Notes under the pieces: generated by a model
Seen by the model: the letters and a program-made list of their open reading frames with translations, nothing else
Told to the model about the DNA's origin: nothing
Database searches by the model: none
Source of the DNA: Rhodothermia bacterium
GTDB taxonomy: Bacteria > Bacteroidota > Rhodothermia > Rhodothermales > UBA2364
NCBI GenBank assembly: GCA_017303715.1
Contig: JAFLBZ010000021.1
Location: 1-64,000, forward strand
Direction of reading: 5' to 3'
Length of the DNA: 64,000 nucleotides
Shown: piece by piece, positions 49,372-64,000 of the stretch
How the letters are laid out: every line of letters begins with the position of its first letter
How positions within the stretch are numbered: position 1 is the first letter of the stretch
Position numbers and translations under genes: made by a program

Positions 49372-51332
49372 GTGCGGGGAACTACTCTGATTGAAGAGAT
49401 CAAAACAATTTGCATCTTCGATCACGGCGTCTTGAAGTTTTGCGAGTGCGGGGAACTACTCTGATTGAAGAGATCAAAACATTATAACAGCTCTGGCAGA
49501 CGTTTCGGGGATACGTGCGGGGAACTACTCTGATTGAAGAGATCAAAACTTATTGCAAGTCAAACGACCAATCGCCAGAATGTCCGTGCGGGGAACTACT
49601 CTGATTGAAGAGATCAAAACAAGGCTATTCTCTTTTCTTCTAGGGTGAGGTTTTTAAAGTGCGGGGAACTACTCTGATTGAAGAGATCAAAACGCGGAGT
49701 TGGTGCCGGGGGTGGCGGAGTAGGTGGCGTGCGGGGAACTACTCTGATTGAAGAGATCAAAACGTGGCTGTTGCTGTGGCTGTGGCTGTGCGGGGAACTA
49801 CTCTGATTGAAGAGATCAAAACGTAGGTACATCCCATCCGGCGGAAGGGGCGGTATAAGTGCGGGGAACTACTCTGATTGAAGAGATCAAAACCAGGCCC
49901 GAAGGCCGAGGTGGATGATGAAATGCCACCATGTGCGGGGAACTACTCTGATTGAAGAGATCAAAACCTTCGTATGCCTGGCTGCGGCACGTGTTTCCTT
50001 TTGTGCGGGGAACTACTCTGATTGAAGAGATCAAAACTTTGGTGGCCGAAGGGGGTTCCACCTCCACCTTCACGGGTGCGGGGAACTACTCTGATTGAAG
50101 AGATCAAAACTCGGGGTTGCACGTTGTGCAAATTGCCCTCAATGCGAGTGCGGGGAACTACTCTGATTGAAGAGATCAAAACATCGTCCAACGGGTTATG
50201 TTTCCGCAAACCTTTAAGTGCGGGGAACTACTCTGATTGAAGAGATCAAAACCTTTTAGTGTTTGAGTATCGGGCGGTTCGTCTGTTACAAGTGCGGGGA
50301 ACTACTCTGATTGAAGAGATCAAAACAAAAAATCTTATAGGGGCGGTGGGAGTGACAAAAATCGTGCGGGGAACTACTCTGATTGAAGAGATCAAAACCA
50401 AAGTTGGAGGTGGAGAGATTTATCTCTCCTTCAATGTGCGGGGAACTACTCTGATTGAAGAGATCAAAACATTTGGTTGCGGAGGGGATTACCACCACAC
50501 CACCGGTGCGGGGAACTACTCTGATTGAAGAGATCAAAACTTGACGTTGTTGTGTCCGAGTGTGTAGACCTCGTTCCAAGTGCGGGGAACTACTCTGATT
50601 GAAGAGATCAAAACGTTACCACCAGGCAACACCACACCACCGCTAAAGCGGGGTGCGGGGAACTACTCTGATTGAAGAGATCAAAACTTTCCAGCTGTGT
50701 ACGCCATAAACTCCCAGAGTTTGTGCGGGGAACTACTCTGATTGAAGAGATCAAAACATAACATTTGTTTGGAGTACTCATCCAACCTAGCGTGCGGGGA
50801 ACTACTCTGATTGAAGAGATCAAAACTCACCACCACCTTCATTATGGGTGCCGGGGTTACCACCAGTGCGGGGAACTACTCTGATTGAAGAGATCAAAAC
50901 TCATCTCCTCCGAAGAGGCGGCGGTGGTGGTGGAGTGCGGGGAACTACTCTGATTGAAGAGATCAAAACCCTTTTGATACTGACGGCCACGGCCAGATTC
51001 GCCGTGCGGGGAACTACTCTGATTGAAGAGATCAAAACAAAAGTAGACGACATAATTCCCCTCAATGAGGGAAAATGTGCGGGGAACTACTCTGATTGAA
51101 GAGATCAAAACGTTTGAGTATCACACGCTGTCAATGCACAGAGCAATAAAGTGCGGGGAACTACTCTGATTGAAGAGATCAAAACGTTTTTGATATCCAG
51201 TAGATACGGATACCGTTCCATTTTGTGCGGGGAACTACTCTGATTGAAGAGATCAAAACGTAATACACACGACTCCTAACCCTTCTGGAATATCTTCGTG
51301 CGGGGAACTACTCTGATTGAAGAGATCAAAAC
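49372..51332 (+). CRISPR. CRISPR array, 28 repeats and 27 spacers (type III-B)
   Basis: Twenty-eight copies of a 35-bp repeat that starts GTGCGGGGAACTAC and ends GAGATCAAAAC; by my reading all copies, including both ends, are identical. First repeat 49372-49406, last 51298-51332. Spacers are 34-39 bases except number 6 (49764-49787), which is 24. In plus orientation the repeat contains a CTCT-GATTGA-AGAG hairpin followed by exactly eight bases, ATCAAAAC, matching the 8-nt 5' tag that Cas6 leaves on type III crRNAs; this supports plus-strand transcription toward cas6. Long minus-strand reading frames across the array are translations of the repeat and are not genes. Several spacers are rich in GGT/CCA triplets. 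Confidence 0.97.
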
Positions 51333-51498: not shown

Positions 51499-52494
51499 AT
51501 GCCAAGTGTAAACCCTGATGGTTTTCCTTACGAAAAGCTAAGTATCTCTCGCTTCCGGTTTACTTTATGGGCGGAGACAGACGTTGTTTTTCATAGCCTT
51601 CCGGCCTCGCATTGGCGAAGTGCCCTCGGAAGTTTATTGTATGATGTTTCTGGTCAATCCATACCAAAATACCATGAAACCACCTATCAAGAACTGTTCA
51701 ATCCACAACCGAGGTCATCCACAGATAAGCGCGATCCGGTGCGCCCCATTATGCTTCATGCGGATCCATGGAAACCCACTACGCTTTCGGCAGGATCCTT
51801 TTTTTATTTAGAGGTGAGTATTTTCGGGAATTACCTCCGTGGTATCGAAACGCTACTCCATGCCGTTTTATCGCTGCAATCGTTAGGGCTTGGAAACAAG
51901 AAATCACATTCTGGTGGTCAATTTCGCGTTTTATCATTAGATCAAGCCCTTCCCGACCAAAAACCGCAGAGACATTATGATCCTTGGCAATATACGACTC
52001 CACATCATTGGGCTACACCTATCTTGAATTCTTTGTCCACACATCCTTTGGAGTCATGGCTCCGGTCAAACATGGCAGAACCGAATGGTAAGCAAAACAT
52101 TTTTCTTCGCTTTACTCGTCCTTTGAATTTCAAGATTAAGGGCAAACCGATTCAAGCGGAAAATTTCACCTTTTCTGAATTTATTCGTGCCCTATATAGG
52201 CGAAATGTGGATTTGTTTTTGAATTTTGGAGAGGGTGAATTGTTGTTCCCAGACTTGGAAGACCTGTTGGATGAGGCAGGGAAAGTGCAGATTTTTTCTA
52301 AAAATATTTGGTACAAAAATGATTTAAGCCGCTATTCTGCACGTCAATTGCAAGAACTTAAGCTCTCTGGTATGATCGGAGAATGGGGGCTAAAAGACGT
52401 ATCTCAACCTTTGAGGAGGTTTTTAGAGGCTGGTTCCTTTACCCATTGTGGTAAAAATACTGTTTTGGGTTTAGGAAAATATGAGCTATACTGA
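51499..52494 (+). CDS. cas6: CRISPR pre-crRNA endoribonuclease Cas6
   Basis: 331 residues, RAMP-fold. The C-terminal part is diagnostic: GMIGEWGLKDVSQPLRRFLE followed by the glycine-rich loop HCGKNTVLGLGKYEL (about 317-331), matching the CRISPR_Cas6 domain; the N-terminal half (about 14-160) forms the first ferredoxin-like domain. It cuts the array transcript within each repeat. It lies 166 bases downstream of the array on the same strand and could share the leader promoter. The stop overlaps the end of convergent cmr6 by nine bases. Here Cas6 is a free-standing protein, whereas some RT-Cas1 systems carry it fused to the RT. I cannot assign the catalytic residue. Confidence 0.88.
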   Translation: MPSVNPDGFPYEKLSISRFRFTLWAETDVVFHSLPASHWRSALGSLLYDVSGQSIPKYHETTYQELFNPQPRSSTDKRDPVRPIMLHADPWKPTTLSAGSFFYLEVSIFGNYLRGIETLLHAVLSLQSLGLGNKKSHSGGQFRVLSLDQALPDQKPQRHYDPWQYTTPHHWATPILNSLSTHPLESWLRSNMAEPNGKQNIFLRFTRPLNFKIKGKPIQAENFTFSEFIRALYRRNVDLFLNFGEGELLFPDLEDLLDEAGKVQIFSKNIWYKNDLSRYSARQLQELKLSGMIGEWGLKDVSQPLRRFLEAGSFTHCGKNTVLGLGKYELY

Positions 52495-53655
52495 TTGCAC
52501 GATACATACTTTCACATTCAAGGCATTATGTACATTTTTTTTGTATTCAGCATTAATAATTATGGTTACCTTACTTCCTAATTCTAGGTGTTCACTTTTC
52601 TCAATTTTATTTATTGCCTTTTGGATGATATTTTTAAATATAGATGTTCGGTTTTTTACCTTTTCTGTAGATTCAAATTCTATAAAGACCATATCATTTT
52701 CAATCCCGACAACTTTACCCTCATAACGGTCATTCTTTTTTAAGTATGTTGCTTGTATGACGTCTCGCATAATGATCATATCATTCGTATCATTACGGCT
52801 TATCTGCTCTAAACGCCCATAACCAACATTTGTTTTTGCACCAATACCTGAGGACAACAATACCTTTTCAAAAAAAGCCATTAACTTTTCGGAAGTTATA
52901 CCAAAATAGGTTGGTAATTCTGGTATCAAAAACATGAAATTTAGCTCAACCCCAGAACCGATTTTAAGAAAAGGTAGTGGTATAGGGTCTTCAAAAGTAC
53001 CTTTGTGAGGTGCAAGTGAATCGCTTTGTAAAATTGTTTTCTCAACAGAAACGGGGAAAGCATCAAAGAAGGAAACCACGCGGTTTCTCGAAATAAAACA
53101 ATCATTAATATCAACTTTATTAGGATCTATTCCTTCAAATAAAAATAGTTCTAATTGATGAATATAACGCTCTTTGGTTAGACCATTGGGAAGCGGTGAG
53201 GGTGTCTCAAAAGCATTAATTAAAAAATCTATTTTAGCCTTTTGGATTTCATCTGTTGTTAAAAGTTCTGGAAAATATCTTTTTTTTCCAATATGGTTAA
53301 TGGTTAATTTAGGAAAGAAATCTCGGATAATGCCTTTGATACTTGAGCCGGGGATAAAAGGTACGCCCGTTGTATGGTCAAAAGAAAATCCCAATTTAAG
53401 TTCGCCTTCTATCCCAATTTCATGGGTATAGCCCGTTCCCATCAAAAGTCCGGGATATGTTGTGCGTAGCTTAATCGTCTTTACTTGCGTAAGCTCTTTT
53501 ATGCCTTTGAGGTATAAGGGAAAGCTGTTCTCAAGTTGAAATGAAAAAAGATAATTGTTTTTTATTGCTATTAATTCTTTATTTCGATTCTTTTGAATTT
53601 GCTCAAAATCAAAGCCTTCAAAATAGCCTCTATAAAATTGATAACCTACATTCAT
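52486..53655 (-). CDS. cmr6: Type III-B RAMP Cmr6 with C-terminal OB-like extension
   Basis: 389 residues. The RAMP core (about 65-295) has GLLMGTGYTHEIG, the conserved GVPFIPGSSIKGIIR loop and a G-rich GIGAKTNVGYGRLE loop, matching Cmr6, the small-subunit cap at the 3' end of the crRNA backbone. Residues about 310-389 (YEGKVVGIENDMVFIEFE ... GSKVTIIINAEYKK) look like an additional OB/S1-type RNA-binding domain that ordinary Cmr6 lacks. Last gene of the minus-strand operon; 12 bases after cmr5; ends tail-to-tail with cas6. Confidence 0.85.
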   Translation of the reverse strand: MNVGYQFYRGYFEGFDFEQIQKNRNKELIAIKNNYLFSFQLENSFPLYLKGIKELTQVKTIKLRTTYPGLLMGTGYTHEIGIEGELKLGFSFDHTTGVPFIPGSSIKGIIRDFFPKLTINHIGKKRYFPELLTTDEIQKAKIDFLINAFETPSPLPNGLTKERYIHQLELFLFEGIDPNKVDINDCFISRNRVVSFFDAFPVSVEKTILQSDSLAPHKGTFEDPIPLPFLKIGSGVELNFMFLIPELPTYFGITSEKLMAFFEKVLLSSGIGAKTNVGYGRLEQISRNDTNDMIIMRDVIQATYLKKNDRYEGKVVGIENDMVFIEFESTEKVKNRTSIFKNIIQKAINKIEKSEHLELGSKVTIIINAEYKKNVHNALNVKVCIVQSV

Positions 53656-53667
53656 GGTCTTGATGGA

Positions 53668-54030
53668 TTAGGTGGATGATTTTTTTTCAAAAACCCGAAT
53701 AGCCAATTTGACAGATACCGCAGCATCTAATAGCTCATCTTCAATTTCGGGATGGGTAATCGCATGTCGCAATAATTGGTCTCCAGTTGTCATCTGGGGA
53801 TTTTCCAACAAGGTAGTAAGTATATTGAGCAAGCCTTTCCGCCTTTTCCCGGCTTCAGAATCACCAATGAAGAAGCAAATTGCTGCCAATAAACCACTTT
53901 GGCGGATACTAGTCCCAAAAGCAGAAATATCAGACGTCAATTCTTTATTCAATTTTGTACCACCAACCTCCATTCCTCTTAAAAGCTCAATTGCTTTTGG
54001 AATCCGACGATTTATTCTTTCCTTTCCCAT
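53668..54030 (-). CDS. cmr5: Type III-B small subunit Cmr5
   Basis: 120 residues, all helical, from the ATG at 54030 (MGKERINRRIPKAIELL) two bases after the cmr4 stop; a longer frame to 54057 would overlap cmr4. The pattern SAFGTSIRQSGLLAAICFF is typical of Cmr5, where a helix packs along the Cmr4 filament opposite the target RNA. It has no catalytic residues of its own. Position between cmr4 and cmr6 agrees with the standard order. Confidence 0.85.
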   Translation of the reverse strand: MGKERINRRIPKAIELLRGMEVGGTKLNKELTSDISAFGTSIRQSGLLAAICFFIGDSEAGKRRKGLLNILTTLLENPQMTTGDQLLRHAITHPEIEDELLDAAVSVKLAIRVFEKKSST

Positions 54031-54032
54031 TT

Positions 54033-54803
54033 TTAGTTTAGTTTTTGGATTAAGCAAAAACCCATTCCAACGCTTGCATTTGCGCCAAATTGGATCACAT
54101 TCTTATCAAGGGTATTTTCAAAACGTTCTTTCAAGGAAGAGTCATTATCACATCGAATACAAAAAATGAACCGCGTTTCGCGAGGGACAAACTCCTCGTA
54201 CCACAAGTTTTTACTTTCGCCATTCTCTAATTGATTCCGGGCACGTACTGGCAGGTTTTTACAAGCTAAGTTGAAGTCTTCTTCGCAAAGTTGAATCGAA
54301 GAATCGCCGAGGTATTTCGGGTTTTGAAGCATCCTTCCTTGGCCATACTCCGTAGAAATGTTACCATTATTAATGTTTTCAGTTGGCCAATTCCAATCCT
54401 GCATATTGTTCACCTTTACCAAAGTTGCCAATTTTGTTTTCAAGTCATTACATGCACGAGCACTGGTGGCACGATAAAAGGGTTCACTATTTATTCTGTT
54501 GCTTCTTATTGGCATAGATAATAAATCCGCTCCAAAAAAGCGATAATTGCCTTGTGCCATTTGCTCTTCATTTGAGGCGTGTTCGGAGCCAAAAATCTTT
54601 ACAATATCTTCAGGACTCAAACTATTTTTTTCCAACTTTAGATGCTCACGCAAAGCACCTTTCAAGCTCGTGGCATAAATGGTAGGAAAGTTGGTTATAG
54701 CATCACGTTGTACAGTTTTATCTATATAGCCGTAATTAGCGTCTCCACTACCAGCATGAAGGTCTGTAAGACAAGTGATTAAAAATGCAAGATGATTAGA
54801 CAT
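54033..54803 (-). CDS. cmr4: Type III-B backbone RNase Cmr4
   Basis: 256 residues, RAMP fold. The N-terminal LHAGSGDANYGYIDKTVQRD includes D28, the position of the Asp that cuts target RNA at 6-nt intervals in Cmr4/Csm3; TIYATSLKGALREH is the standard RAMP glycine-loop region; the C-terminus has FGANASVGMGFCLI. Several copies polymerise along the crRNA. Complete, with no sign of loss of activity. Gaps are 27 bases to cmr3 and two to cmr5, indicating one operon. Confidence 0.92.
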   Translation of the reverse strand: MSNHLAFLITCLTDLHAGSGDANYGYIDKTVQRDAITNFPTIYATSLKGALREHLKLEKNSLSPEDIVKIFGSEHASNEEQMAQGNYRFFGADLLSMPIRSNRINSEPFYRATSARACNDLKTKLATLVKVNNMQDWNWPTENINNGNISTEYGQGRMLQNPKYLGDSSIQLCEEDFNLACKNLPVRARNQLENGESKNLWYEEFVPRETRFIFCIRCDNDSSLKERFENTLDKNVIQFGANASVGMGFCLIQKLN

Positions 54804-54830: not shown

Positions 54831-55982
54831 TTATAAAACGTGGTAATAATTGTAGCCTATTTTTTTAAATCCCGGATTATTTAGCGTTTCCAAAAGGGCG
54901 TTCAGATTGCTTTTCTTAACAAAAAGAACGCTTCCTGTGGACAACAAGTGTTGGCGCTCACTTTTGGTGAGGGCTGCCTCATCTGTGCTTTTTCCTTTTT
55001 TGAAAATGACCCATTTTGTTGTTTTTCCAAGGTTGGTCTGAATAAATCGGTGTGTTACTTGTTCATAAATGCCCGCCACAAGGTGCTTACTCATGGTCTC
55101 CAAATCTACACGGGCGGGTGAAAGAAGAATAACTTTATGGTACTCTGGGATTGAATCATCTTTAAAATTAGCCTTTAAAAGGGTTTCAAAGACGTCTTCA
55201 ATCGGGGTATTTGGGGAGGTGTGTTCGTCAATATTCAAATAAAACATAGATCGTTCTGCACCCAGAAAAACCTCCTCGGAGGTAATCCCATGACCGTCCT
55301 TCAAGCGCACATAAAAAGCAAAACAAAGGTCGGTTTCTTTCATCCTTTTATACACTTGACGATAATACCCTTCATCTTTATTTGACCGTAGTGTTCCTTC
55401 CTTTATTATGCCAACCCGTTCATCATTAATAAACAGGTCTGCTTCAAGGGAGAAGGATTGGTCGGTACTTACAAAGCCCTTACGGAGTTCGTATTTAGAA
55501 GAATATGGTGTTTCGTCATCACCAGACGTTCCAAGCAACTCATATAGGGGATTAACTGTCTCATTTTTTAAGGTGAAGAAGGACGCACGGCTTTTACGTG
55601 GAAAAATTTTATAATCCTTATTTTCTGAAATGAAAGTATCAAGAGGAGCAATGAAATATGGTTTTTTATCTGATTTATGGTACAAAAAAATTGGAGAAAT
55701 TGACTCAATATAACCAAAAGATTGGGGCATATCAGATCCAGCAGTAAAACTTTCCCCCCCAACTTTTTTTTTAGCATTAATTAGGTCTTTAGAGTTTGGT
55801 ATAGGCGACAATAAATTCCTTTTTACCAAAATTTGATAACGCAACATCCCTAAAATGCTTGTCTGTTGTGGGAAAACTTCTGAACGGACAAAATAGTTTT
55901 TCTTTTCGCCGCTGTCAAAGGTAATATCTCCGCCAAAGAAGTAGGCATCAAGTGGAGAAAGTGTGATGAAATAGGTTTTCAT
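54831..55982 (-). CDS. cmr3: Type III-B RAMP Cmr3
   Basis: 383 residues from the ATG at 55982 (MKTYFITLSPLDAYFFGG); an ATG-less upstream extension overlaps cas10 and is rejected. The N-terminal LSPLDAYFFGGDITFDSGE and VFPQQTSILGMLRYQILV are typical for Cmr3/Csm4, which holds the crRNA 5' tag and contacts Cas10. The C-terminus is less conserved. 17 bases downstream of cas10. The tag it would recognise is predicted here as AUCAAAAC. Confidence 0.87.
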   Translation of the reverse strand: MKTYFITLSPLDAYFFGGDITFDSGEKKNYFVRSEVFPQQTSILGMLRYQILVKRNLLSPIPNSKDLINAKKKVGGESFTAGSDMPQSFGYIESISPIFLYHKSDKKPYFIAPLDTFISENKDYKIFPRKSRASFFTLKNETVNPLYELLGTSGDDETPYSSKYELRKGFVSTDQSFSLEADLFINDERVGIIKEGTLRSNKDEGYYRQVYKRMKETDLCFAFYVRLKDGHGITSEEVFLGAERSMFYLNIDEHTSPNTPIEDVFETLLKANFKDDSIPEYHKVILLSPARVDLETMSKHLVAGIYEQVTHRFIQTNLGKTTKWVIFKKGKSTDEAALTKSERQHLLSTGSVLFVKKSNLNALLETLNNPGFKKIGYNYYHVL

Positions 55983-55999
55983 AATACTATGTTTTAGGG

Positions 56000-57487
56000 T
56001 TAACGTCCATTTTTTAGGGGAGTTTGCAAAAAGTCGGCATAACGTGCGCAAGTGAAAACCAACTTCAAAGTGGACGCTACTTTATCTTTGGGTTCAATAA
56101 GGCTTTTGTCCAAATAATTGGTCCATAAACTTGCGATGAGTAGGTCTTTAATTTTATTCAAAAAATCACTATCTTGGTGCGGTTTCTCATTGAAATTGTT
56201 ATCAAACCAATGTGGAACTTGATCCACAAATTTTTCATTGAATGTGGTAAATATTCCTGAAAATACCGATTCATGAACAGATAGTTTGTAGATCATTGAA
56301 GATAATATTTGATTCTGTCTATTTTGATTGAGCGCCAACTTGATTAGATCCGAGAATGTCTCTATAATTTTAACATTAGACTTGTCCAGAACGATTTCCA
56401 TACTTTGGCCGCTATGTTTCCGTAAAGAAAATGCGAAACTATTACGGTCTTTTTTTGCTTGTTTTAATAGGTAGTGTGCTTGGTCTAACATTTCTCTTAG
56501 GGGATATTTGATGTAGCCTATTGAAATCCCCGCAGAAAGTGAAGGAGGATTTTTAGTATTCATAAAAGGTTTTATTTCTGTATTTTTGGTTATAAAATCT
56601 TCAAATTTACTATCTAAGTCTTTTATTAACCCGAAGATGTCTTGGTTGTTTACTCCCACTAAAGGGGCAAAAAATAAAAGGTCGTCTCCGCCCGCATAAA
56701 CCGTTAATCCTCCAAAATTTTCTACTATTTTTGTGGCTGCTACGCTATAGTCCATCAAGTATTTTGATACTATTTTAATTCTGTCGCTACTATTGGCACT
56801 TTGAATGAGCTTACCAATATGATCCGCATCTAAAGAACAAACGGCTACATATTTTTGACGTTGAAATTTTAATGGCTTACCCCCTTTTGCGATTTCAGAC
56901 AAATCTTTGAAACTTTCTAAACGATTTGCCTCTAAATACGCTTTAGCAAAACAATTATAATCTGCTTTTTCAAAAAAATCTAATAAGACTGTTTTGAAAC
57001 CATCCCCTTGAATTGGGAAAAAAGGCATTTTCTCCAATCCATCCAAATAAGTGTTTCCTGTTTTAATGACGTCGTGATCTGCCTCATAGGTTATGATGTG
57101 AATATTTAAGTAGGAATATAGAAATGTCTTAATGTTTTCTTGGCTGATTTTGTTATTCTTCAAATCCTTGGCAATCAAAGTAGAAAAGGCATCCATCGTA
57201 TTACCTAATTCACCTCTAAAGGTTTTTTCAGCGGCTTTTGGATTATTGACCTGAAGAAAGAAACGATCTGGGAAAAGCCCAACCTTTTTGGTAATCGCCT
57301 GCCGTTCTGGTTCGAGTAACCCATTTACATCAGGGATTAAAAAATCACCAACGTGTTGACATTTTGTGGCCACTTCACGCATGAGATACGAAAATATATA
57401 ACTCGCTGTCCACATGGCTTTTGTGCTTTTTGCCTGGCGGATCGTGTTATGTATTGGTCCTATGGTTGCTGCAAGGTAATAAGGCAT
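56000..57487 (-). CDS. cas10: Cas10/Cmr2 large subunit, HD domain absent
   Basis: 495 residues, short for Cmr2. It begins directly with the palm-proximal YYLAATIGPIHNTIRQAKSTKAMW and has no N-terminal HD nuclease motif and no CxxC zinc-binding pairs. The catalytic palm is intact: metal-binding SLDADHIG around D220/D222 and GGDD at 266-269 (VYAGGDDLLFFAPL). It should therefore sense target RNA and make a nucleotide messenger without cutting DNA. With CorA and a DHH phosphodiesterase next door, the messenger is expected to be SAM-AMP rather than cyclic oligoadenylate, by analogy with Bacteroides fragilis. Four bases after cmr1, 17 before cmr3. Confidence 0.9.
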   Translation of the reverse strand: MPYYLAATIGPIHNTIRQAKSTKAMWTASYIFSYLMREVATKCQHVGDFLIPDVNGLLEPERQAITKKVGLFPDRFFLQVNNPKAAEKTFRGELGNTMDAFSTLIAKDLKNNKISQENIKTFLYSYLNIHIITYEADHDVIKTGNTYLDGLEKMPFFPIQGDGFKTVLLDFFEKADYNCFAKAYLEANRLESFKDLSEIAKGGKPLKFQRQKYVAVCSLDADHIGKLIQSANSSDRIKIVSKYLMDYSVAATKIVENFGGLTVYAGGDDLLFFAPLVGVNNQDIFGLIKDLDSKFEDFITKNTEIKPFMNTKNPPSLSAGISIGYIKYPLREMLDQAHYLLKQAKKDRNSFAFSLRKHSGQSMEIVLDKSNVKIIETFSDLIKLALNQNRQNQILSSMIYKLSVHESVFSGIFTTFNEKFVDQVPHWFDNNFNEKPHQDSDFLNKIKDLLIASLWTNYLDKSLIEPKDKVASTLKLVFTCARYADFLQTPLKNGR

Positions 57488-57491
57488 TATT

Positions 57492-58769
57492 TTATTTTTT
57501 TTTATAATTTTTTATGTTACCTGATAAAATTGGTTTCGCTCCAGCTTGGGCGGTTGCACAATCAAGAAAGTTTATTAAATCAAAATTAGATGGTATTTGT
57601 AGAGACAAAATGTTTCTTTCTATGCGACGGCTACCGTTTGTACTTACTGAAAAATCAAACATTCTAGGACGTTTGTCATTCAAATAAAGATTTTCAGGAA
57701 TTTGGCCACCAATCATATATATCTGTTTCTTGAATATTTTAAACATAATTGGGGATTTAAAGCGATTCACAACATTGTCGTTACTTGCATCTGAGATGTT
57801 AATAACGACTTTGTCATTATGATTGTTTGTTAAATATTCATTATTTTCCGCAAGGCCAAGCAAGGCGCGTATATACATATGGTTATATATGGCATCCTTT
57901 GTACACTCTAAAACAGGGTGTGTCCCCGGATTTATCATACCCCAAATATCAGGATGATTGTTTTTTAGTGTTACTTTTAATTCTCTTTTTTCCCATCTTA
58001 TATTATGTTTTTCACAAAAATATTCCCAAAGGATAGATTTTGCATAGCCTAAACGAGCACGTGAAGACCTACCGGATTTTAATAACTGATAGTCGTCATT
58101 AATTTTCTCTAGGGTTTTATTATAGTCATTTAATTTGCTGGTTTCTTGATATATCGCTAAATTTGTTGGCCTTTTCTTAAGAATTTCTATAAATTTATTT
58201 TCAGTCATATTTTCTACAGTAAAACTTCCAAAAGCTTTAGATTGACGTGAACCAAAATTTTCAAGTACAAAAATATATTCAAGTGACAATAATAAAAGGT
58301 CATTTAATTTTTTATACCATGAAGATATGTGAATACAGATATCGTTGTACATTATCCCTAATTTTATGGGAAGGCCATTCGGTGTGTGATTATTTATTAT
58401 TTTTTCGATGTATTGAGAATCAGCAAAATAGGCAACGTTACCAATTGCTTTCAAGTCGGTATTATTTTCAATATCTTGGATTTTTTTTTGGGAAATAACG
58501 GTATTGTAAAAATACTTTTTGTCTTCCTTCCCTGTCACCCATAATTTATAAGGAGCGAGATAACCATTTTCATTTGGGGAGGGCTTAAAATGTTGATTGA
58601 TAATGTCTTTGTATTCATCGTAGCGATCTGGATCAACCACTTGTAGTTCATTTACGATAAAACGGTTCAGTTTTGGCCGGAGTTCGGTCATCCGGAGTAG
58701 CCCATCTTGCTCCCACTGAAAGTGTAATAAGGGGCTGTGTTGGATAAGTTTTACGGAGGTGCTAAACAT
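57492..58769 (-). CDS. cmr1: Type III-B RAMP Cmr1-like protein
   Basis: 425 residues. The start VKLIQHSPLLHFQWEQDGLLRMTELRPKLNRF is the Cmr1 signature (target-RNA/PFS end of the Cmr complex), and FGSRQSKAFGSF (about 173-184) is its glycine-rich loop. The C-terminal half has a weaker second RAMP fold. The middle and C-terminus are rich in Lys/Asn/Ile and diverge from classic Cmr1. It stands at the head of the cmr genes, 20 bases after the small membrane protein. Assignment rests on the N-terminus, the loop and gene order. Confidence 0.82.
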   Translation of the reverse strand: MFSTSVKLIQHSPLLHFQWEQDGLLRMTELRPKLNRFIVNELQVVDPDRYDEYKDIINQHFKPSPNENGYLAPYKLWVTGKEDKKYFYNTVISQKKIQDIENNTDLKAIGNVAYFADSQYIEKIINNHTPNGLPIKLGIMYNDICIHISSWYKKLNDLLLLSLEYIFVLENFGSRQSKAFGSFTVENMTENKFIEILKKRPTNLAIYQETSKLNDYNKTLEKINDDYQLLKSGRSSRARLGYAKSILWEYFCEKHNIRWEKRELKVTLKNNHPDIWGMINPGTHPVLECTKDAIYNHMYIRALLGLAENNEYLTNNHNDKVVINISDASNDNVVNRFKSPIMFKIFKKQIYMIGGQIPENLYLNDKRPRMFDFSVSTNGSRRIERNILSLQIPSNFDLINFLDCATAQAGAKPILSGNIKNYKKK

Positions 58770-58789: not shown

Positions 58790-59044
58790 TTACTTATAAA
58801 TCTGTTTTCTTTCTTCGGCACGGTCTTCGAGGCGGTCTTTCTCCATACAATAATCCAGCCAGTGTTTAAACGAACGGCCCATTGCAAAAAACATGGCAAG
58901 GAAAAACAACATAATCGAGACGCCAGCCCAAAGTACATTTCCCGCATCAAGTTTGGAGAAATACTGATCTGTTTTGTATAAGGCGTATTCCAAAATGCTG
59001 ATACATGTAAAGAGGAAAAGCCCGAATGGTAAATGTTTGTTCAT
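58790..59044 (-). CDS. Small two-TM membrane protein coupled to CorA
   Basis: 84 residues from the ATG at 59044, whose ATGA overlaps the corA stop (59041-59044), the arrangement of translational coupling; an upstream ATG at 59056 adds four residues. Two hydrophobic helices (about 6-22 and 37-56) are followed by a highly charged tail (57-84, HWLDYCMEKDRLEDRAEERK) that could form an amphipathic helix in the cytoplasm. I know no named family. Being locked between corA and cmr1 in a CRISPR operon argues that it works with the CorA effector, for example as an accessory subunit, assembly factor or pore modifier. That role is inferred. Confidence 0.75.
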   Translation of the reverse strand: MNKHLPFGLFLFTCISILEYALYKTDQYFSKLDAGNVLWAGVSIMLFFLAMFFAMGRSFKHWLDYCMEKDRLEDRAEERKQIYK

Positions 59045-60636
59045 CGTCTTCCCCATTGTTTAATGATTCGAACCAAGGGTTTTGCCAAAAACAAGCTTAT
59101 AAAAGCAAGCAAGACAGATGAAACAATCAGGTAGAGCACCAATTGCCCTCTGATTTCTTCAGGCCAGTTCAGGCCGAAGAGTGCCAAAAGGGACGCAACA
59201 AATGATGCAGGAAGGAAGAGGGTGGCTACGTAGGTTAGTCGGCTGTTTTCTTTAGTTTCGGCATAGGTGTTGATTTCTGCAATTTCTTCGCGTAAATCTT
59301 TAACCTCGTCACGGATGCGCATTTGCTCCTGGAGCAAGTCGTAAAGTTCTATTCCTTGTTCTTGTGGGGTTACTTCCCTAAAGAAAATCCGGTTCACAAA
59401 TTTAATGTACTGGACGTATAGGTGTGCGATATTGCTTTGTTCCCCGTCTATCTCTTGGGCATCTCCGGTAAGACGACGGGCTATACGTGCCACCTCGCCA
59501 GAAAATTGTATAATGGAAGCACGTTGGAGAAGGCAGAGCAATACCAACTGGAAATACATATGACGGAAGTGGTTTAGCAAGACATTTCGTACAAAAACGT
59601 CACTACTATCACTTACCATCATCATAAAGGAATATCGTGTAATGCCAAAGAAGGTGCTATCTTTAGGAGAGTTGGTATTTAGCCAGCGGGTATAGGTTGC
59701 TTTTTCGATGAGCAGTTTGCGCATCTCTGGGTTGGGGCAGGACATGTTACCACCGTCTATAAATAGATATTGATACCATTCTGGGTCTGATGTCCAATTC
59801 GTATCTTTGTCATCAGCGGGTTTGGCCAAGAGATGTTTCATGTGGGCTGCCTGTGCCGAAAAGCACATCACAAACATGCGATCGTCCAAAAGAGGGGCGA
59901 TAAGGTAGTCCCCTTTTTTGGCAAGAGCAGGGTGGTCTCTTACGCCCGTACCCAACAATGCCATAATGTGATTGGGCAAATGGGATGGTAAACGTCTAAC
60001 TTTTTCCTGAACATCAAAATGGGAGAAGTCTTCTTCTATATTGTTCGCATAAACGGATTTTACACCGTTTAGCGTAATTTTGGAAGCTAAAAAGGCCGTT
60101 TTCGGTGCCTTTGTTTGTTGGTCTTTCTCAGAGCCAAGGAATTGGGGGTATAACCGTCGTCCATAATCATTAATCCGTCGAATATCGCTTAATGCCGGAT
60201 ACGTGTTATTTTGAAGCAAGTAGGTTATAATCCCTACCCCATTTTCATAGATATTGAGTAAAATTTCCTTGAGTTTCAAGATGTAGGCGGTGCTGTTGTT
60301 AATTTCGATTTCGAAAGAGGCTTTTGGGATTTCAATAGCTTCATATTTAAACTGTGCAATTCGCACACTGGCTTCTGGATCGTTCATGGAGATGTTTAGG
60401 ACATCCCTCGCAAAGTCGTAGAAATAGGCGAATTCATTATAGGTATTGTATTGTTCATCATTTACGACCGGCTCAAAAGAGAATTGCCGCCAAGGCCCAC
60501 GCTCCAAATACGTCGCAAATTGATCTATACTTGCGCGTAAGCTTAGTGGCGTCCGAGAAGCATCAGAGCCTACATATTTTTCCCATTTAAAAGGGAAGAT
60601 AAAAATGTGTTCGCTATGTATCGGAGGTACATTCAT
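59041..60636 (-). CDS. corA: CorA-like membrane effector of the type III CRISPR system
   Basis: 531 residues. About 450 N-terminal residues form the soluble, presumably ligand-sensing domain; a long helix (about 415-465, EQMRIRDEVKDLREEIAEIN) leads to two C-terminal TM helices (467-488 and 498-519) with the CorA topology. The canonical Gly-Met-Asn selectivity motif is replaced by G488-L489-N490 (FGLNW). In B. fragilis a CorA homologue in the same operon type is the membrane effector triggered by SAM-AMP. Overlaps nrN by 23 bases upstream and the small TM gene by four bases downstream. Ion specificity cannot be read from the sequence. Confidence 0.87.
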   Translation of the reverse strand: MNVPPIHSEHIFIFPFKWEKYVGSDASRTPLSLRASIDQFATYLERGPWRQFSFEPVVNDEQYNTYNEFAYFYDFARDVLNISMNDPEASVRIAQFKYEAIEIPKASFEIEINNSTAYILKLKEILLNIYENGVGIITYLLQNNTYPALSDIRRINDYGRRLYPQFLGSEKDQQTKAPKTAFLASKITLNGVKSVYANNIEEDFSHFDVQEKVRRLPSHLPNHIMALLGTGVRDHPALAKKGDYLIAPLLDDRMFVMCFSAQAAHMKHLLAKPADDKDTNWTSDPEWYQYLFIDGGNMSCPNPEMRKLLIEKATYTRWLNTNSPKDSTFFGITRYSFMMMVSDSSDVFVRNVLLNHFRHMYFQLVLLCLLQRASIIQFSGEVARIARRLTGDAQEIDGEQSNIAHLYVQYIKFVNRIFFREVTPQEQGIELYDLLQEQMRIRDEVKDLREEIAEINTYAETKENSRLTYVATLFLPASFVASLLALFGLNWPEEIRGQLVLYLIVSSVLLAFISLFLAKPLVRIIKQWGRR

Positions 60637-61363
60637 GTAGGAGTGAATTTATAATGGTCTGAAGTGGTATTTTTGCTTGAAAGCCACCAAAAAAACCATT
60701 TGGTCCGCCGCCATAATATGCATGTCCACTTCGGATTTCTTGTTCAAACTTTTGGGCCAAGTTTTGTGCGCCAATGCCAAAGTATGTAAAGGTAGTGGGG
60801 TTGTGTACCAAGAGTTGATTTTCCGTTTTGCCAAAAAGTCGGTCGGTTACAGGCGAAAAGCGTTTGCCAGAGAAAGAGACAACGGTGAGGGCTTTAATCA
60901 TTTTTTTTTCGGTGATGGCTAAAACAGCTGCTTGCTCTTCTTCGGGCGTAACACCTTGTGCTTTGCGGTCAGCGATACGGATTTCCTCAATTTCAGCTTC
61001 GGAAGCACCGATTTCCAAAAGCGCCGGAATGTACCCGCTATCATTGGCAGCAACCAATTTCATGTGCCAGTCGGGTGGGTGTCCTAAAATCTTGGCGACT
61101 TGTAAAATCGCGGCCTCGCGGTTGGCGTATTCATTGTGGTGGTCAATACGGATGTAATGCGCTGGCGGAGTTATATCTTCTATCAATTCTATGCCATAAA
61201 CCTGCGAAAAGGCGCGGAAATCGGGAAAATCGGCTTGATAGGCACTTAGACGGGCACCCCAAGATAGTTTTTTGTCTAAAAAAGGTATCTTCTTACGATC
61301 TAAAATATGTCGTATTTCCAACATCTCTAAATCATAACCCCCTAATAAAAAAAGTGGACTCAT
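60614..61363 (-). CDS. nrn: DHH-family phosphodiesterase NrN (predicted SAM-AMP hydrolase)
   Basis: 249 residues from the ATG at 61363 (MSPLFLLGGYDLEML). The DHH motif is I-D74-H75-H76-N-E-Y; further Asp sites are in LLGGYDLEM (D11) and AANDSGYIP (D108), fitting the bimetal centre of DHH/DHHA1-like enzymes. A C-terminal glycine-rich GGGPNGFFGGF motif resembles the substrate-binding GGG-H loop of DHHA1. First gene of the minus-strand CRISPR operon. In B. fragilis the corresponding gene degrades SAM-AMP and so switches off CorA; I assign the same role by context. Confidence 0.85.
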   Translation of the reverse strand: MSPLFLLGGYDLEMLEIRHILDRKKIPFLDKKLSWGARLSAYQADFPDFRAFSQVYGIELIEDITPPAHYIRIDHHNEYANREAAILQVAKILGHPPDWHMKLVAANDSGYIPALLEIGASEAEIEEIRIADRKAQGVTPEEEQAAVLAITEKKMIKALTVVSFSGKRFSPVTDRLFGKTENQLLVHNPTTFTYFGIGAQNLAQKFEQEIRSGHAYYGGGPNGFFGGFQAKIPLQTIINSLLHECTSDT

Positions 61364-61470
61364 ATGCAAAGGGAGTTTATTTTATATATTTTCAATATAA
61401 AGAAGCTTAAACAAGAAAGCAATTGTTTTTAGGGTAAGGTCTGATATTTTTTAAACCTTTTGGAGGGCAT
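61364..61470. promoter_or_regulatory. Divergent promoter region between nrN and RT-cas1
   Basis: 107 AT-rich bases that must hold start signals for both the interference/effector operon (minus) and the adaptation operon (plus). Stretches such as TTTATTTTATATATTTTC lie near the nrN start and TGATATTTTTTAAACC near RT-cas1. I cannot fix exact promoter boxes. One control site here could tie adaptation to defence. Confidence 0.45.
61462..61466 (+). promoter_or_regulatory. Strong Shine-Dalgarno (GGAGG) of RT-cas1
   Basis: GGAGG ends four bases before the ATG at 61471 (TTTTGGAGGGCAT-ATG). It fixes the start of the RT-Cas1 gene. Most other genes here have no recognisable Shine-Dalgarno, as is usual in Bacteroidota, so it stands out. 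Confidence 0.75.
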
Positions 61471-63714
61471 ATGCAACTTTGGTCTTCCTTTATAGATCCG
61501 GCAAACTTTATGGTGGCTTGGGACCAAGTTCGGATGAACAACGGCACTTCGGGGATTGATGGGGTTTCGTGCTTGGCCTTTGCGGATCGGTTAGCGGTAG
61601 CGCTTAAAAATCTGATGGGTGAATTGGAGGCGGGGACTTATCAAACGGCTCCTTTAAGGCCCATTGAACTTCGTTTACCAGATGATCGGACACGTACTTT
61701 ATTGATCCCAACTGTCAGAGATCGGGTGGCACAGACTGCTTTACACTTTGTATTACTCCCGCGTTTGGAGGCGGAATTGGCCGATTGCACCTTTGCGTAT
61801 CGGCCGGGCCTTAGCCATCACGATGCTGTAAAAACAGTGGGTGAGTGGCGACTTTTGGGATATGAATGGGTTGTGGATGCAGACATTACCCGATATTTTG
61901 ATGAGGTACCCCATGATCTGCTCATTGATCGGTTGCGGGTAATGGTTCCTGAAGACCGGATTTTGTCGTTGGTGCGTCAATGGATTGCAGCGCCTGTGGG
62001 CAGGCATCCAAATGCACCAAAGAGAACCAAAGGACTTCCGCAAGGCAGCCCGATTTCTCCCATTTTGTCCAACCTGTTTTTGGATAAATTAGATGAGGCG
62101 CTTTTGGCAGAAAACCTAAAGTTGGTGCGCTTTGCCGATGATTTTGTAATCTTATGTAAGACTCAAAATCAAGCCCTTTCTGCATTGGCTTTAACGATTG
62201 CGGTATTGGATGAACTGGAATTGTCCTTACATCCGAAAAAAACCAGAATTGCCCATTTTAATGAGGGTTTTCAGTTTTTGGGTCATCTATTCCTAAGAAG
62301 CCTAATCTTGCCCTTACGGTCTAAAAAACGGTTGGTGTTGCCCGCTACCACCGCGATTGAACACTTGATCCAGACGAAAGAGAAGGCCGATCAGGTGGTA
62401 CTGAAGTCTCCTAATGCTCCCCCAAACCCCACTTCTGATGCACCTTGGCCGCTGCCTTCTTCGGTTGCGATCGGAGCCGCACCAGATACAACGCTGGCCG
62501 ATGCCTTGGCCCACGCCTTGGCTGAAAAAGGCGTGACTTTAAAGGACTTTAAGACAGATTTGCCCGAATCATTACCGCTTTCCAGCGAACCCACCCCAAA
62601 AAGCACCGTTGTGCAGCGCCCTTTGCAGACCAATCCCCCCACCTTTAGCCCATTATTACCAGCTTTGCCTCAGGTAAAAGGCGCCTTATTACTCCGAACC
62701 CTCTACCTTCATGAGCAAGGGGCTTGGTTACAAGTGGAGGGAGATCGTTTCAAGGTGACGAAATCTCGTGACCAAGTCCGTGAAACACTTTTAAACATCC
62801 CCCAAATTAAAGTGGCGCAAGTGGTTGTTTTTGGGAGTATTACCATAAGTCCAGCTGCTATACGCCTTTGTTTGTTGAAAAACATCCCCATTACCTATTT
62901 ATCTGTTACAGGAAAGTACTATGGGCGTTTGGAACAACCCGATGCCAATATGTTAGACCGAAGGCGCAGTCAGTTCCGGCTTTCGGAAGAGGAAGAACGA
63001 TCTTTAAGACTGGCACGTGCATTTGTTCAAGGGAAATTGATAAACCAGCGCATGTACCTCCAGCGGCTACACCAAGAACACCCACAAGCAGATATTGTAG
63101 CGGCCATTCAATATATTGGAAAGCGGATCCGACGAATACCGGGAATGAAAACCACTGATATGTTACGGGGCTTGGAGGGGTTGGCCGCCCATCGTTTTTA
63201 TGCAGCTTGGGCCACCTGTATTCGTCAGGAAGGAATGGCGTTTACACACCGCCAGAGAAGGCCACCGCCCGATCCGGTAAATGCTTTGTTGAGTTTGGGA
63301 TATACCTTACTCTACCAAAATATGATCAGTTTGTTGTGTATTCATCGCCTCGACCCCTATATGGGCATCCTTCATGCAGAACGGGGCGGACATGCGGCTC
63401 TGGCAAGTGACCTGATGGAGGAGTTCCGCTTTCTTATTGATCGTTTGGTTTTGCGATTGATCAACAAAAGTATTATCCAACGTTCAGATTTTTTTATCTC
63501 GGACGATGGCTTTGGTCAAGCAGCCTGTTACCTCAAGCCCGAAGCTCGGAAGACCTATATCCGCGCATTTGAGGAATTGATGCAGACCACCCTGAAGCAT
63601 CCCAGACTAAGACGAGCCGTTACATATCGGCAGGCCATGGATGTACAGGTACAGTACTTTGTTCGGACGCTACAACAAGACGAACCCTATTTGCCTTTTC
63701 GACTCCCTAAATAA
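61471..63714 (+). CDS. Reverse transcriptase-Cas1 fusion
   Basis: 747 residues. RT domain about 1-285: motif A VDADITRYFDEVP (D138), GLPQGSPISPILSNL (188-202) and the catalytic FADD (221-224), all intact and group II intron-like. A Pro/Ser/Thr-rich linker of roughly 100 residues (about 305-400) joins it to Cas1 (about 402-747) with the metal triad E569 (RGLEGL), H635 (LHAERGG) and D647 (SDLMEEF). There is no N-terminal Cas6 domain. Such fusions can integrate spacers from RNA after cDNA synthesis. It is followed by cas2 after 11 bases and is divergent from the effector operon. Confidence 0.95.
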   Translation: MQLWSSFIDPANFMVAWDQVRMNNGTSGIDGVSCLAFADRLAVALKNLMGELEAGTYQTAPLRPIELRLPDDRTRTLLIPTVRDRVAQTALHFVLLPRLEAELADCTFAYRPGLSHHDAVKTVGEWRLLGYEWVVDADITRYFDEVPHDLLIDRLRVMVPEDRILSLVRQWIAAPVGRHPNAPKRTKGLPQGSPISPILSNLFLDKLDEALLAENLKLVRFADDFVILCKTQNQALSALALTIAVLDELELSLHPKKTRIAHFNEGFQFLGHLFLRSLILPLRSKKRLVLPATTAIEHLIQTKEKADQVVLKSPNAPPNPTSDAPWPLPSSVAIGAAPDTTLADALAHALAEKGVTLKDFKTDLPESLPLSSEPTPKSTVVQRPLQTNPPTFSPLLPALPQVKGALLLRTLYLHEQGAWLQVEGDRFKVTKSRDQVRETLLNIPQIKVAQVVVFGSITISPAAIRLCLLKNIPITYLSVTGKYYGRLEQPDANMLDRRRSQFRLSEEEERSLRLARAFVQGKLINQRMYLQRLHQEHPQADIVAAIQYIGKRIRRIPGMKTTDMLRGLEGLAAHRFYAAWATCIRQEGMAFTHRQRRPPPDPVNALLSLGYTLLYQNMISLLCIHRLDPYMGILHAERGGHAALASDLMEEFRFLIDRLVLRLINKSIIQRSDFFISDDGFGQAACYLKPEARKTYIRAFEELMQTTLKHPRLRRAVTYRQAMDVQVQYFVRTLQQDEPYLPFRLPK

Positions 63715-63725
63715 ACTTCCAAAAA

Positions 63726-64000
63726 ATGACCCGAACTTTGATCTTCTATGACCTGCCCGATGACCGCCAACGTTATCGCCTTTCGCGGCTGCTTGAAGCC
63801 TATGGCGAACGGGTGCAAGGAAGCGTCTTTGAGTGCCTATTAACCCCAACCCAAATCACCCAATTGATCCAGAGCCTTCAGGGGTTTGATCCCGGAAAAG
63901 GTAGTATCCGGCTCTACCGTATTTGTGGGCGTTGCGAGCCACATCGTTTGGTTTGGGGGACTGCAAAAGAAGTGGAAGACCCGCCCTATTATTTGGTTTG
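63726..64000 (+). CDS. cas2: CRISPR-associated Cas2 (3' end outside window)
   Basis: 91 codons visible with no stop, which is nearly full length for Cas2 (90-100 residues), so only the end is missing. It starts MTRTLIFYDLPDD, with the conserved Asp (D9) of the ferredoxin-like fold, then RLSRLLEAYGERVQGSVFEC, the typical Cas2 dimer strand, and RLYRICGRC. Cas2 bridges two Cas1 dimers in spacer integration. 11 bases after RT-cas1, same operon. Confidence 0.92.
   Translation, partial: MTRTLIFYDLPDDRQRYRLSRLLEAYGERVQGSVFECLLTPTQITQLIQSLQGFDPGKGSIRLYRICGRCEPHRLVWGTAKEVEDPPYYLV

What the first reader, a model, noticed from the sequence alone, without database searches (positions are those of the whole stretch)
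56000..57487. Minimal Cas10: no HD nuclease and no zinc-binding pairs, but intact palm
At 495 residues it is much shorter than usual Cmr2; the first residues already match the palm-proximal domain, and no CxxC pair exists. DxD and GGDD are kept. All immunity beyond target RNA cutting must then come from the messenger and CorA.
Basis: seen in the sequence. Interest (0 to 1): 0.6.

Follow-up and report, generated by a model that had tools for sequence, protein, structure and literature searches.

The report
Typical SAM-AMP-type Cas10, no HD
This is the signalling subunit of a bacterial RNA-sensing CRISPR system of an already described kind, whose Cas10 has no DNA-cutting domain and most likely makes the messenger SAM-AMP to open a CorA membrane channel; it is a good but ordinary member of that family.

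Summary
Window 56000-57487 (-) encodes a complete 495-residue Cmr2/Cas10 that begins directly with the Cmr2_N (first palm) domain. It has no HD domain, no CxxC pair, an intact DAD (220-222) and GGDD (266-269), and a confident model (pLDDT 92.9). It is not an exceptional minimal Cas10. All 62 CorA-linked Cas10s I collected lack the HD domain, 60 of 62 lack CxxC, and 15 of 62 are shorter. The solved relative 9lq5-9lq8, whose numbering matches the Bacteroides fragilis enzyme (Chi et al. 2023), also lacks both. HD loss in this family was published in 2023.

The query also keeps the two acidic residues (D74, E152) equivalent to B. fragilis D70/E151. These are D plus E/D in 62/62 CorA-linked Cas10s and N plus K/R in 18/18 non-CorA Cas10s of the same phylum. 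It groups with the B. fragilis-type enzyme, next to genes for CorA and a DHH (NrN-like) hydrolase. Best reading: a SAM-AMP synthase of the known type III-B/CorA/NrN kind.

The zinc point does not discriminate: 15 of 18 controls also lack paired CxxC. The genome has other CRISPR systems, including a Cas3 HD elsewhere. A small membrane-protein gene beside corA may be the newer lead.

The parts
56000..57487 (-). Cas10/Cmr2, 495 aa: palm1 (Cmr2_N, residues 4-89 by Pfam), short linker, palm2 (213-351), C-terminal helices; no HD domain, no CxxC
57266..57268 (-). Cas10 D74, equivalent of B. fragilis D70 (SAM acceptor pocket)
   Evidence: alignment; role from PMC10600005
57032..57034 (-). Cas10 E152, equivalent of B. 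fragilis E151
   Evidence: role from PMC10600005
56822..56830 (-). DAD motif, residues 220-222
56681..56692 (-). GGDD motif, residues 266-269
60614..61369 (-). DHH-family hydrolase, NrN-like (DHH at 76-78), predicted SAM-AMP phosphodiesterase
   Evidence: PADLOC DHH_CorA 1.2e-68; motif
59041..60636 (-). CRISPR-associated CorA channel effector, 531 aa
   Evidence: PADLOC CorA 2.4e-108; invariant R159/R160 and D250/D251
58790..59056 (-). small membrane protein (88 aa, two hydrophobic stretches, charged tail) overlapping the corA stop
   Evidence: no family
57492..58769 (-). Cmr1
   Evidence: PADLOC 7.3e-58
54831..55979 (-). Cmr3 (Cas5-like), from internal ATG
   Evidence: Pfam Cas_Cmr3 1.9e-18
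54033..54803 (-). Cmr4 (Cas7 backbone), catalytic Asp D28 kept
   Evidence: NCBIfam 2e-39; motif
53668..54057 (-). Cmr5
   Evidence: PADLOC 1.7e-23
52486..53655 (-). Cmr6
   Evidence: NCBIfam 7e-28
51499..52494 (+). Cas6
   Evidence: PADLOC 1.1e-50
49372..51332 (+). CRISPR array, 28 copies of a 35-nt repeat
61471..63714 (+). reverse transcriptase-Cas1 fusion
   Evidence: Pfam RVT_1 5e-31 and Cas1 4.5e-89
63726..64000 (+). Cas2-like ORF (ends one base past the window)
   Evidence: ORF in L139 2727-3002, directly after RT-Cas1; name from position and appearance, not scanned

Best explanation
A type III-B (Cmr) complex of the known CorA/NrN (SAM-AMP) kind. Cas6-processed crRNAs guide Cmr1-6 with Cas10 to foreign RNA; Cmr4 cuts the RNA. 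Target binding switches on the Cas10 palm site (DAD/GGDD), which joins SAM (acceptor pocket carrying D74/E152) to ATP to make SAM-AMP. SAM-AMP opens or activates the CorA membrane protein, and the DHH (NrN-like) enzyme degrades it. Cas10 itself cuts no DNA because the HD domain is absent. Shown here: domain content, motif and acceptor-residue conservation, clade membership, operon, fold. Inferred from B. fragilis biochemistry: SAM-AMP chemistry, CorA activation, NrN hydrolysis.
For: Domains without HD. AF2 model pLDDT 92.9 / pTM 0.93, best PDB matches 9lq7/9lq5/9lq6/9lq8 Cas10 of a type III-B complex, TMq 0.79-0.86. That chain carries D70, E151 and GGDD 326-329 as numbered for B. fragilis Cas10 in PMC10600005. 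Acceptor signature D+E/D in 62/62 CorA-linked versus N+K/R in 18/18 controls. CorA-linked Cas10s plus 9lq5_B form one group against controls, support 0.91. CorA 2.4e-108 and DHH_CorA 1.2e-68 next door. In B. fragilis, cyclase site, CorA and NrN are all required.
Against: No biochemistry on this protein; identity to 9lq5_B is only 28.9%. Controls were few (18, one phylum). The tree is FastTree on 493 columns; the exact position of the query inside the clade is poorly supported (0.45). The identification of 9lq5 with B. fragilis rests on matching residue numbers, not on a record title.
Confidence: 0.9

Rival explanations
1. An HD-less Cas10 that makes cyclic oligoadenylates; CorA responds to a cOA, as was speculated for the Actinomyces CorA group.
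For: HD-less cOA-type Cas10s are common: 8 of 18 controls lack HD (the eighth, L126, by Pfam). PMC11229360 proposes a cA6-type CorA subclass.
Against: The acceptor residues have reversed charge exactly as in the SAM-AMP enzyme and opposite to all 18 controls; a DHH SAM-AMP-type hydrolase is adjacent; no Csm6-2-like gene seen in the operon.
Confidence: 0.06
2. The Cas10 lost its HD and zinc parts recently and the locus is decaying or inactive.
For: Short for a Cmr2; this Cas10 type was found in only one genome among 245 of its class.
Against: All operon genes are intact ORFs with overlaps; GGDD, DAD, DHH and Cmr4 D28 kept; HD is absent in the whole group; 28- and 8-repeat arrays with RT-Cas1 and a Cas2-like gene.
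Confidence: 0.03
3. A separately encoded HD nuclease works with this complex.
For: The genome has a Cas3 HD (C5:22812-23231, 777-aa frame, E 1e-5).
Against: It lies on another contig among type I-like genes with its own large array of a different repeat; no HD in the window by profile.
Confidence: 0.01

Closest known systems
Bacteroides fragilis type III-B Cmr with CorA and NrN (SAM-AMP system; Chi et al. 2023, PMC10600005)
   Same: HD-less Cas10 with active palm; D70/E151 acceptor residues; CorA plus DHH hydrolase; cmr1-6 and Cas6
   Different: Cas10 495 aa instead of 600 (shorter palm1-palm2 linker and surface loops); small membrane-protein gene between corA and cmr1, which the text read does not name; RT-Cas1 fusion here (fused RT-Cas1 is also mentioned for the group in that paper)
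PDB 9lq5-9lq8 type III-B effector (apo, NTR-, adTR- and CTR-bound; released 2025-11-26)
   Same: same fold over the whole chain, TMq 0.79-0.86; no HD, no CxxC
   Different: 28.9% identity; extra loops at 180-194, 221-259, 409-429
Arcobacter/Campylobacterota CorA-linked Cmr with DHH-CorA fusion
   Same: short HD-less, CxxC-less Cas10 (453 aa in L032) with the D/E signature
   Different: DHH and CorA fused there; separate but overlapping genes here
Pyrococcus furiosus Cmr2 (3w2v, 4w8y)
   Same: palm1/palm2 architecture and GGDD
   Different: carries HD in the full-length chain and two CxxC pairs; N300/R436 in the acceptor site; cOA type

Membership tests
Type III-B Cas10/Cmr2 | Cmr2_N and palm2 domains with GGDD; NCBIfam TIGR02577 above cut-off | tested here: met
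   Pfam both domains; TIGR02577 105.3 bits against cut-off 79.4
Type III-B Cas10/Cmr2 | operon with cmr1, cmr3, cmr4, cmr5, cmr6 | tested here: met
SAM-AMP-synthesising (CorA-1) Cas10 | two conserved acidic acceptor residues (B. fragilis D70, E151) | tested here: met
   D74, E152
SAM-AMP-synthesising (CorA-1) Cas10 | groups with B. fragilis-type Cas10 apart from cOA-type Cas10 | tested here: met
   monophyly support 0.91
SAM-AMP-synthesising (CorA-1) Cas10 | linked corA and SAM-AMP-degrading enzyme | tested here: met
   CorA and DHH_CorA models
SAM-AMP-synthesising (CorA-1) Cas10 | no HD nuclease domain | tested here: met
SAM-AMP-synthesising (CorA-1) Cas10 | makes SAM-AMP from SAM and ATP on target RNA binding | not testable with these tools
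   needs biochemistry
HD-bearing Cas10 | about 190-235 aa N-terminal HD domain with HDPP-like motif | tested here: not met
   three residues precede residue 4 of the query

The most novel reading that the evidence does not exclude
CorA in Bacteroidota SAM-AMP loci works with an unrecognised small membrane protein encoded between corA and cmr1 (window 58790-59056). Such a gene recurs with diverged sequence but similar layout (one or two hydrophobic stretches, charged tail) in roughly 15 of the fetched Bacteroidota loci, and would be a channel accessory or regulator.
Probability: 0.3. Interest if true: 0.5.

Novelty: new member of a known kind. Interest (0 to 1): 0.2.

Why it matters
It settles that the 'minimal Cas10' is the rule for SAM-AMP-type CRISPR rather than an oddity, and gives a simple two-residue test (acid/acid against Asn/basic) that separated CorA-linked from other Cas10s without exception in this sample. 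A published survey kept only Cas10 proteins above 500 aa (PMC11229360), so a 495-aa Cas10 such as this one and the shorter Campylobacterota ones would be missed by that filter.

Tried and rejected
Missed upstream start or frameshifted HD: rejected, the Cmr1 stop lies 4 nt upstream of the ATG. HD in another operon gene: rejected by profile. Zinc loss as a mark of SAM-AMP chemistry: rejected, since 15 of 18 non-CorA controls also lack paired CxxC; a looser C/H-pair count gave 5/62 and 4/18. First CorA profile search at E<=1e-3 mostly returned ordinary CorA transporters (266 of 394 genomes); only hits of about 1e-20 or better were used. Searches for a paper on the 9lq5 structures found none in the library.

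Full report
What is there. Window 56000-57487 on the minus strand is a complete 495-aa Cas10/Cmr2. The gene upstream (Cmr1) stops 4 nt before its ATG, so no N-terminal domain has been missed. Pfam gives Cmr2_N at 4-89 and Cas10-Cmr2_palm2 at 213-351, and nothing else above cut-off. The surrounding genes are DHH hydrolase, CorA, a small membrane protein, Cmr1, Cas10, Cmr3, Cmr4, Cmr5 and Cmr6 on the minus strand, flanked by Cas6 and a 28-repeat array on one side and RT-Cas1 and a Cas2-like ORF on the other. A second array of eight copies of the same repeat lies just past the window (C21:64268-64819).

HD domain. Residues 1-212 match only Cmr2_N even at E<=10. I built a profile from the N-terminal extensions (187-235 aa, HDPP-like motif) of ten HD-bearing Cas10s from the same phylum. 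It found all ten and no other frame in the window or any fetched locus at E<=1. The AF2 model from 58 homologues is confident (pLDDT 92.9) and shows residues 3-152 as an alternating strand/helix palm-like domain. Foldseek's best matches are the Cas10 chains of 9lq7, 9lq5, 9lq6 and 9lq8 (TMq 0.79-0.86).

Is it minimal? A scan of genome contigs with a CorA alignment gave 80 loci. With two plasmid loci and the window, 62 complete or near-complete CorA-linked Cas10s were extracted. Lengths run 380-645 aa (median 541) and 15 are below 495, mostly Campylobacterota; the 380-aa one appears frameshifted, since a further Cas10 fragment follows it. None has an N-terminal extension near HD size (median 4 aa, largest 77). 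Pfam on 58 of them finds Cmr2_N and palm2 in all and no HD family apart from one chance-level YfbR-like hit (0.008). Thus lack of HD is the family rule, as stated for B. fragilis Cas10 by Chi et al. (PMC10600005).

Zinc pairs. 60 of 62 CorA-linked Cas10s have no CxxC, and neither has 9lq5_B, while P. furiosus Cmr2 and 9arw keep two pairs (visible). But 15 of 18 non-CorA Cas10s of the phylum also lack two CxxC pairs, including HD-bearing ones. Loss of the pairs is real but does not discriminate. Compared with 9lq5_B the query is shorter mainly in the palm1-palm2 linker (15 and 39 residues) and in a loop of 21 residues after query residue 345.

What it makes. Chi et al. found two invariant acidic residues, D70 and E151, in the acceptor pocket of CorA-linked Cas10; the double change abolished SAM-AMP synthesis. 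The 9lq5_B chain has D70, E151 and GGDD at 326-329, so its numbering is that of the B. fragilis enzyme. The query has D74 and E152. Across 62 CorA-linked sequences the first position is D in all and the second E in 60 and D in 2. Across 18 non-CorA sequences the first is N and the second K or R in all (read). CorA-linked sequences plus 9lq5_B form one group against the controls (support 0.91).

Neighbours. CorA (PADLOC 2.4e-108) and DHH_CorA (1.2e-68) are adjacent and overlap. The DHH motif is at 76-78 and Cmr4 keeps the Asp at 28. CorA keeps GRR (158-160) and DDRM (250-253) among its invariant columns; these probably correspond to the R152/R153 and D219/D220 tested in B. fragilis, which I could not align directly. 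In DHH-less relatives, BLAST clustering groups the gene upstream of corA into families that look like the known alternatives, DEDD-type and lyase-type (names by appearance and gene position).

The rest of the genome. A second type III-B locus on C1 has Cmr1, a PtuA/PtuB-like pair, an HD-less 606-aa Cas10 with N/K acceptor residues, Cmr3, a CARF-RelE-type protein and Cmr4-6, with no CRISPR array within the stretches examined. C5 holds a Cas3 with an HD domain, Cas4- and Cas1-like genes and an array of at least 73 repeats of another sequence.

Side leads. (a) The 88-aa gene between corA and cmr1 encodes two hydrophobic stretches and a charged tail. Genes of similar layout fill the same gap in about 15 other Bacteroidota loci, and I saw none in the Campylobacterota or Clostridia loci with a gap of at least 60 nt. 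(b) L138 carries a Cas10 with the D/E signature but no CorA; in its place stand a SLATT_4 2TM protein and a 428-aa protein, next to a stub of about 55 residues of the DHH gene.

Verdict. Observation confirmed; known kind; low surprise.

Noticed in passing
window 58790-59056 (-); L035 11622-11918, L036 8005-8349, L047 6851-7363, L058 11647-12171, L062 2428-2703, L063 7330-7803, L079 11562-11861, L080 11670-12113, L085 11590-12003, L088 11446-11871, L095 3136-3723, L096 1861-2061, L097 11606-11848, L103 11609-11872: A small gene between corA and cmr1 encodes one or two hydrophobic stretches plus a charged tail in many Bacteroidota CorA loci; sequences are diverged (only L035 matched the window protein), no family matched, and the papers searched do not mention it.
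   Followed up: partly
L138 7561-13084 (genome G019, contig C22): A III-B operon whose Cas10 has the SAM-AMP signature (GLFPDR, LDSMELQ) but no CorA; a SLATT_4 2TM protein (PF18186, 3.6e-14) and a 428-aa protein occupy its place, with a stub of about 55 residues of the DHH gene beside them: a possible effector swap.
   Followed up: partly
G000 C1, L136 6337-16797: Second type III-B locus in the same genome: HD-less 606-aa Cas10 of the N/K (cOA) type, a CARF-RelE-type protein, and a PtuA/PtuB (Septu-like) pair inserted between cmr1 and cas10. The PtuA-like gene contains a 9-nt tandem repeat (L136 7398-7487).
   Followed up: partly
G000 C5, L170 5530 to beyond 19512: Type I-like locus: WYL-type regulator, Cas3 with HD, Cas4- and Cas1-like genes, and an array of at least 73 repeats.
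   Followed up: partly
PMC11229360 methods: The 2024 type III survey required Cas10 proteins over 500 aa; this Cas10 (495 aa) and about a quarter of the CorA-linked Cas10s found here are at or below that limit.
   Followed up: yes
genomes of the window's class: Only the window's own genome of 245 searched in its class had this Cas10 type (E<=1e-50), suggesting horizontal acquisition.
   Followed up: no
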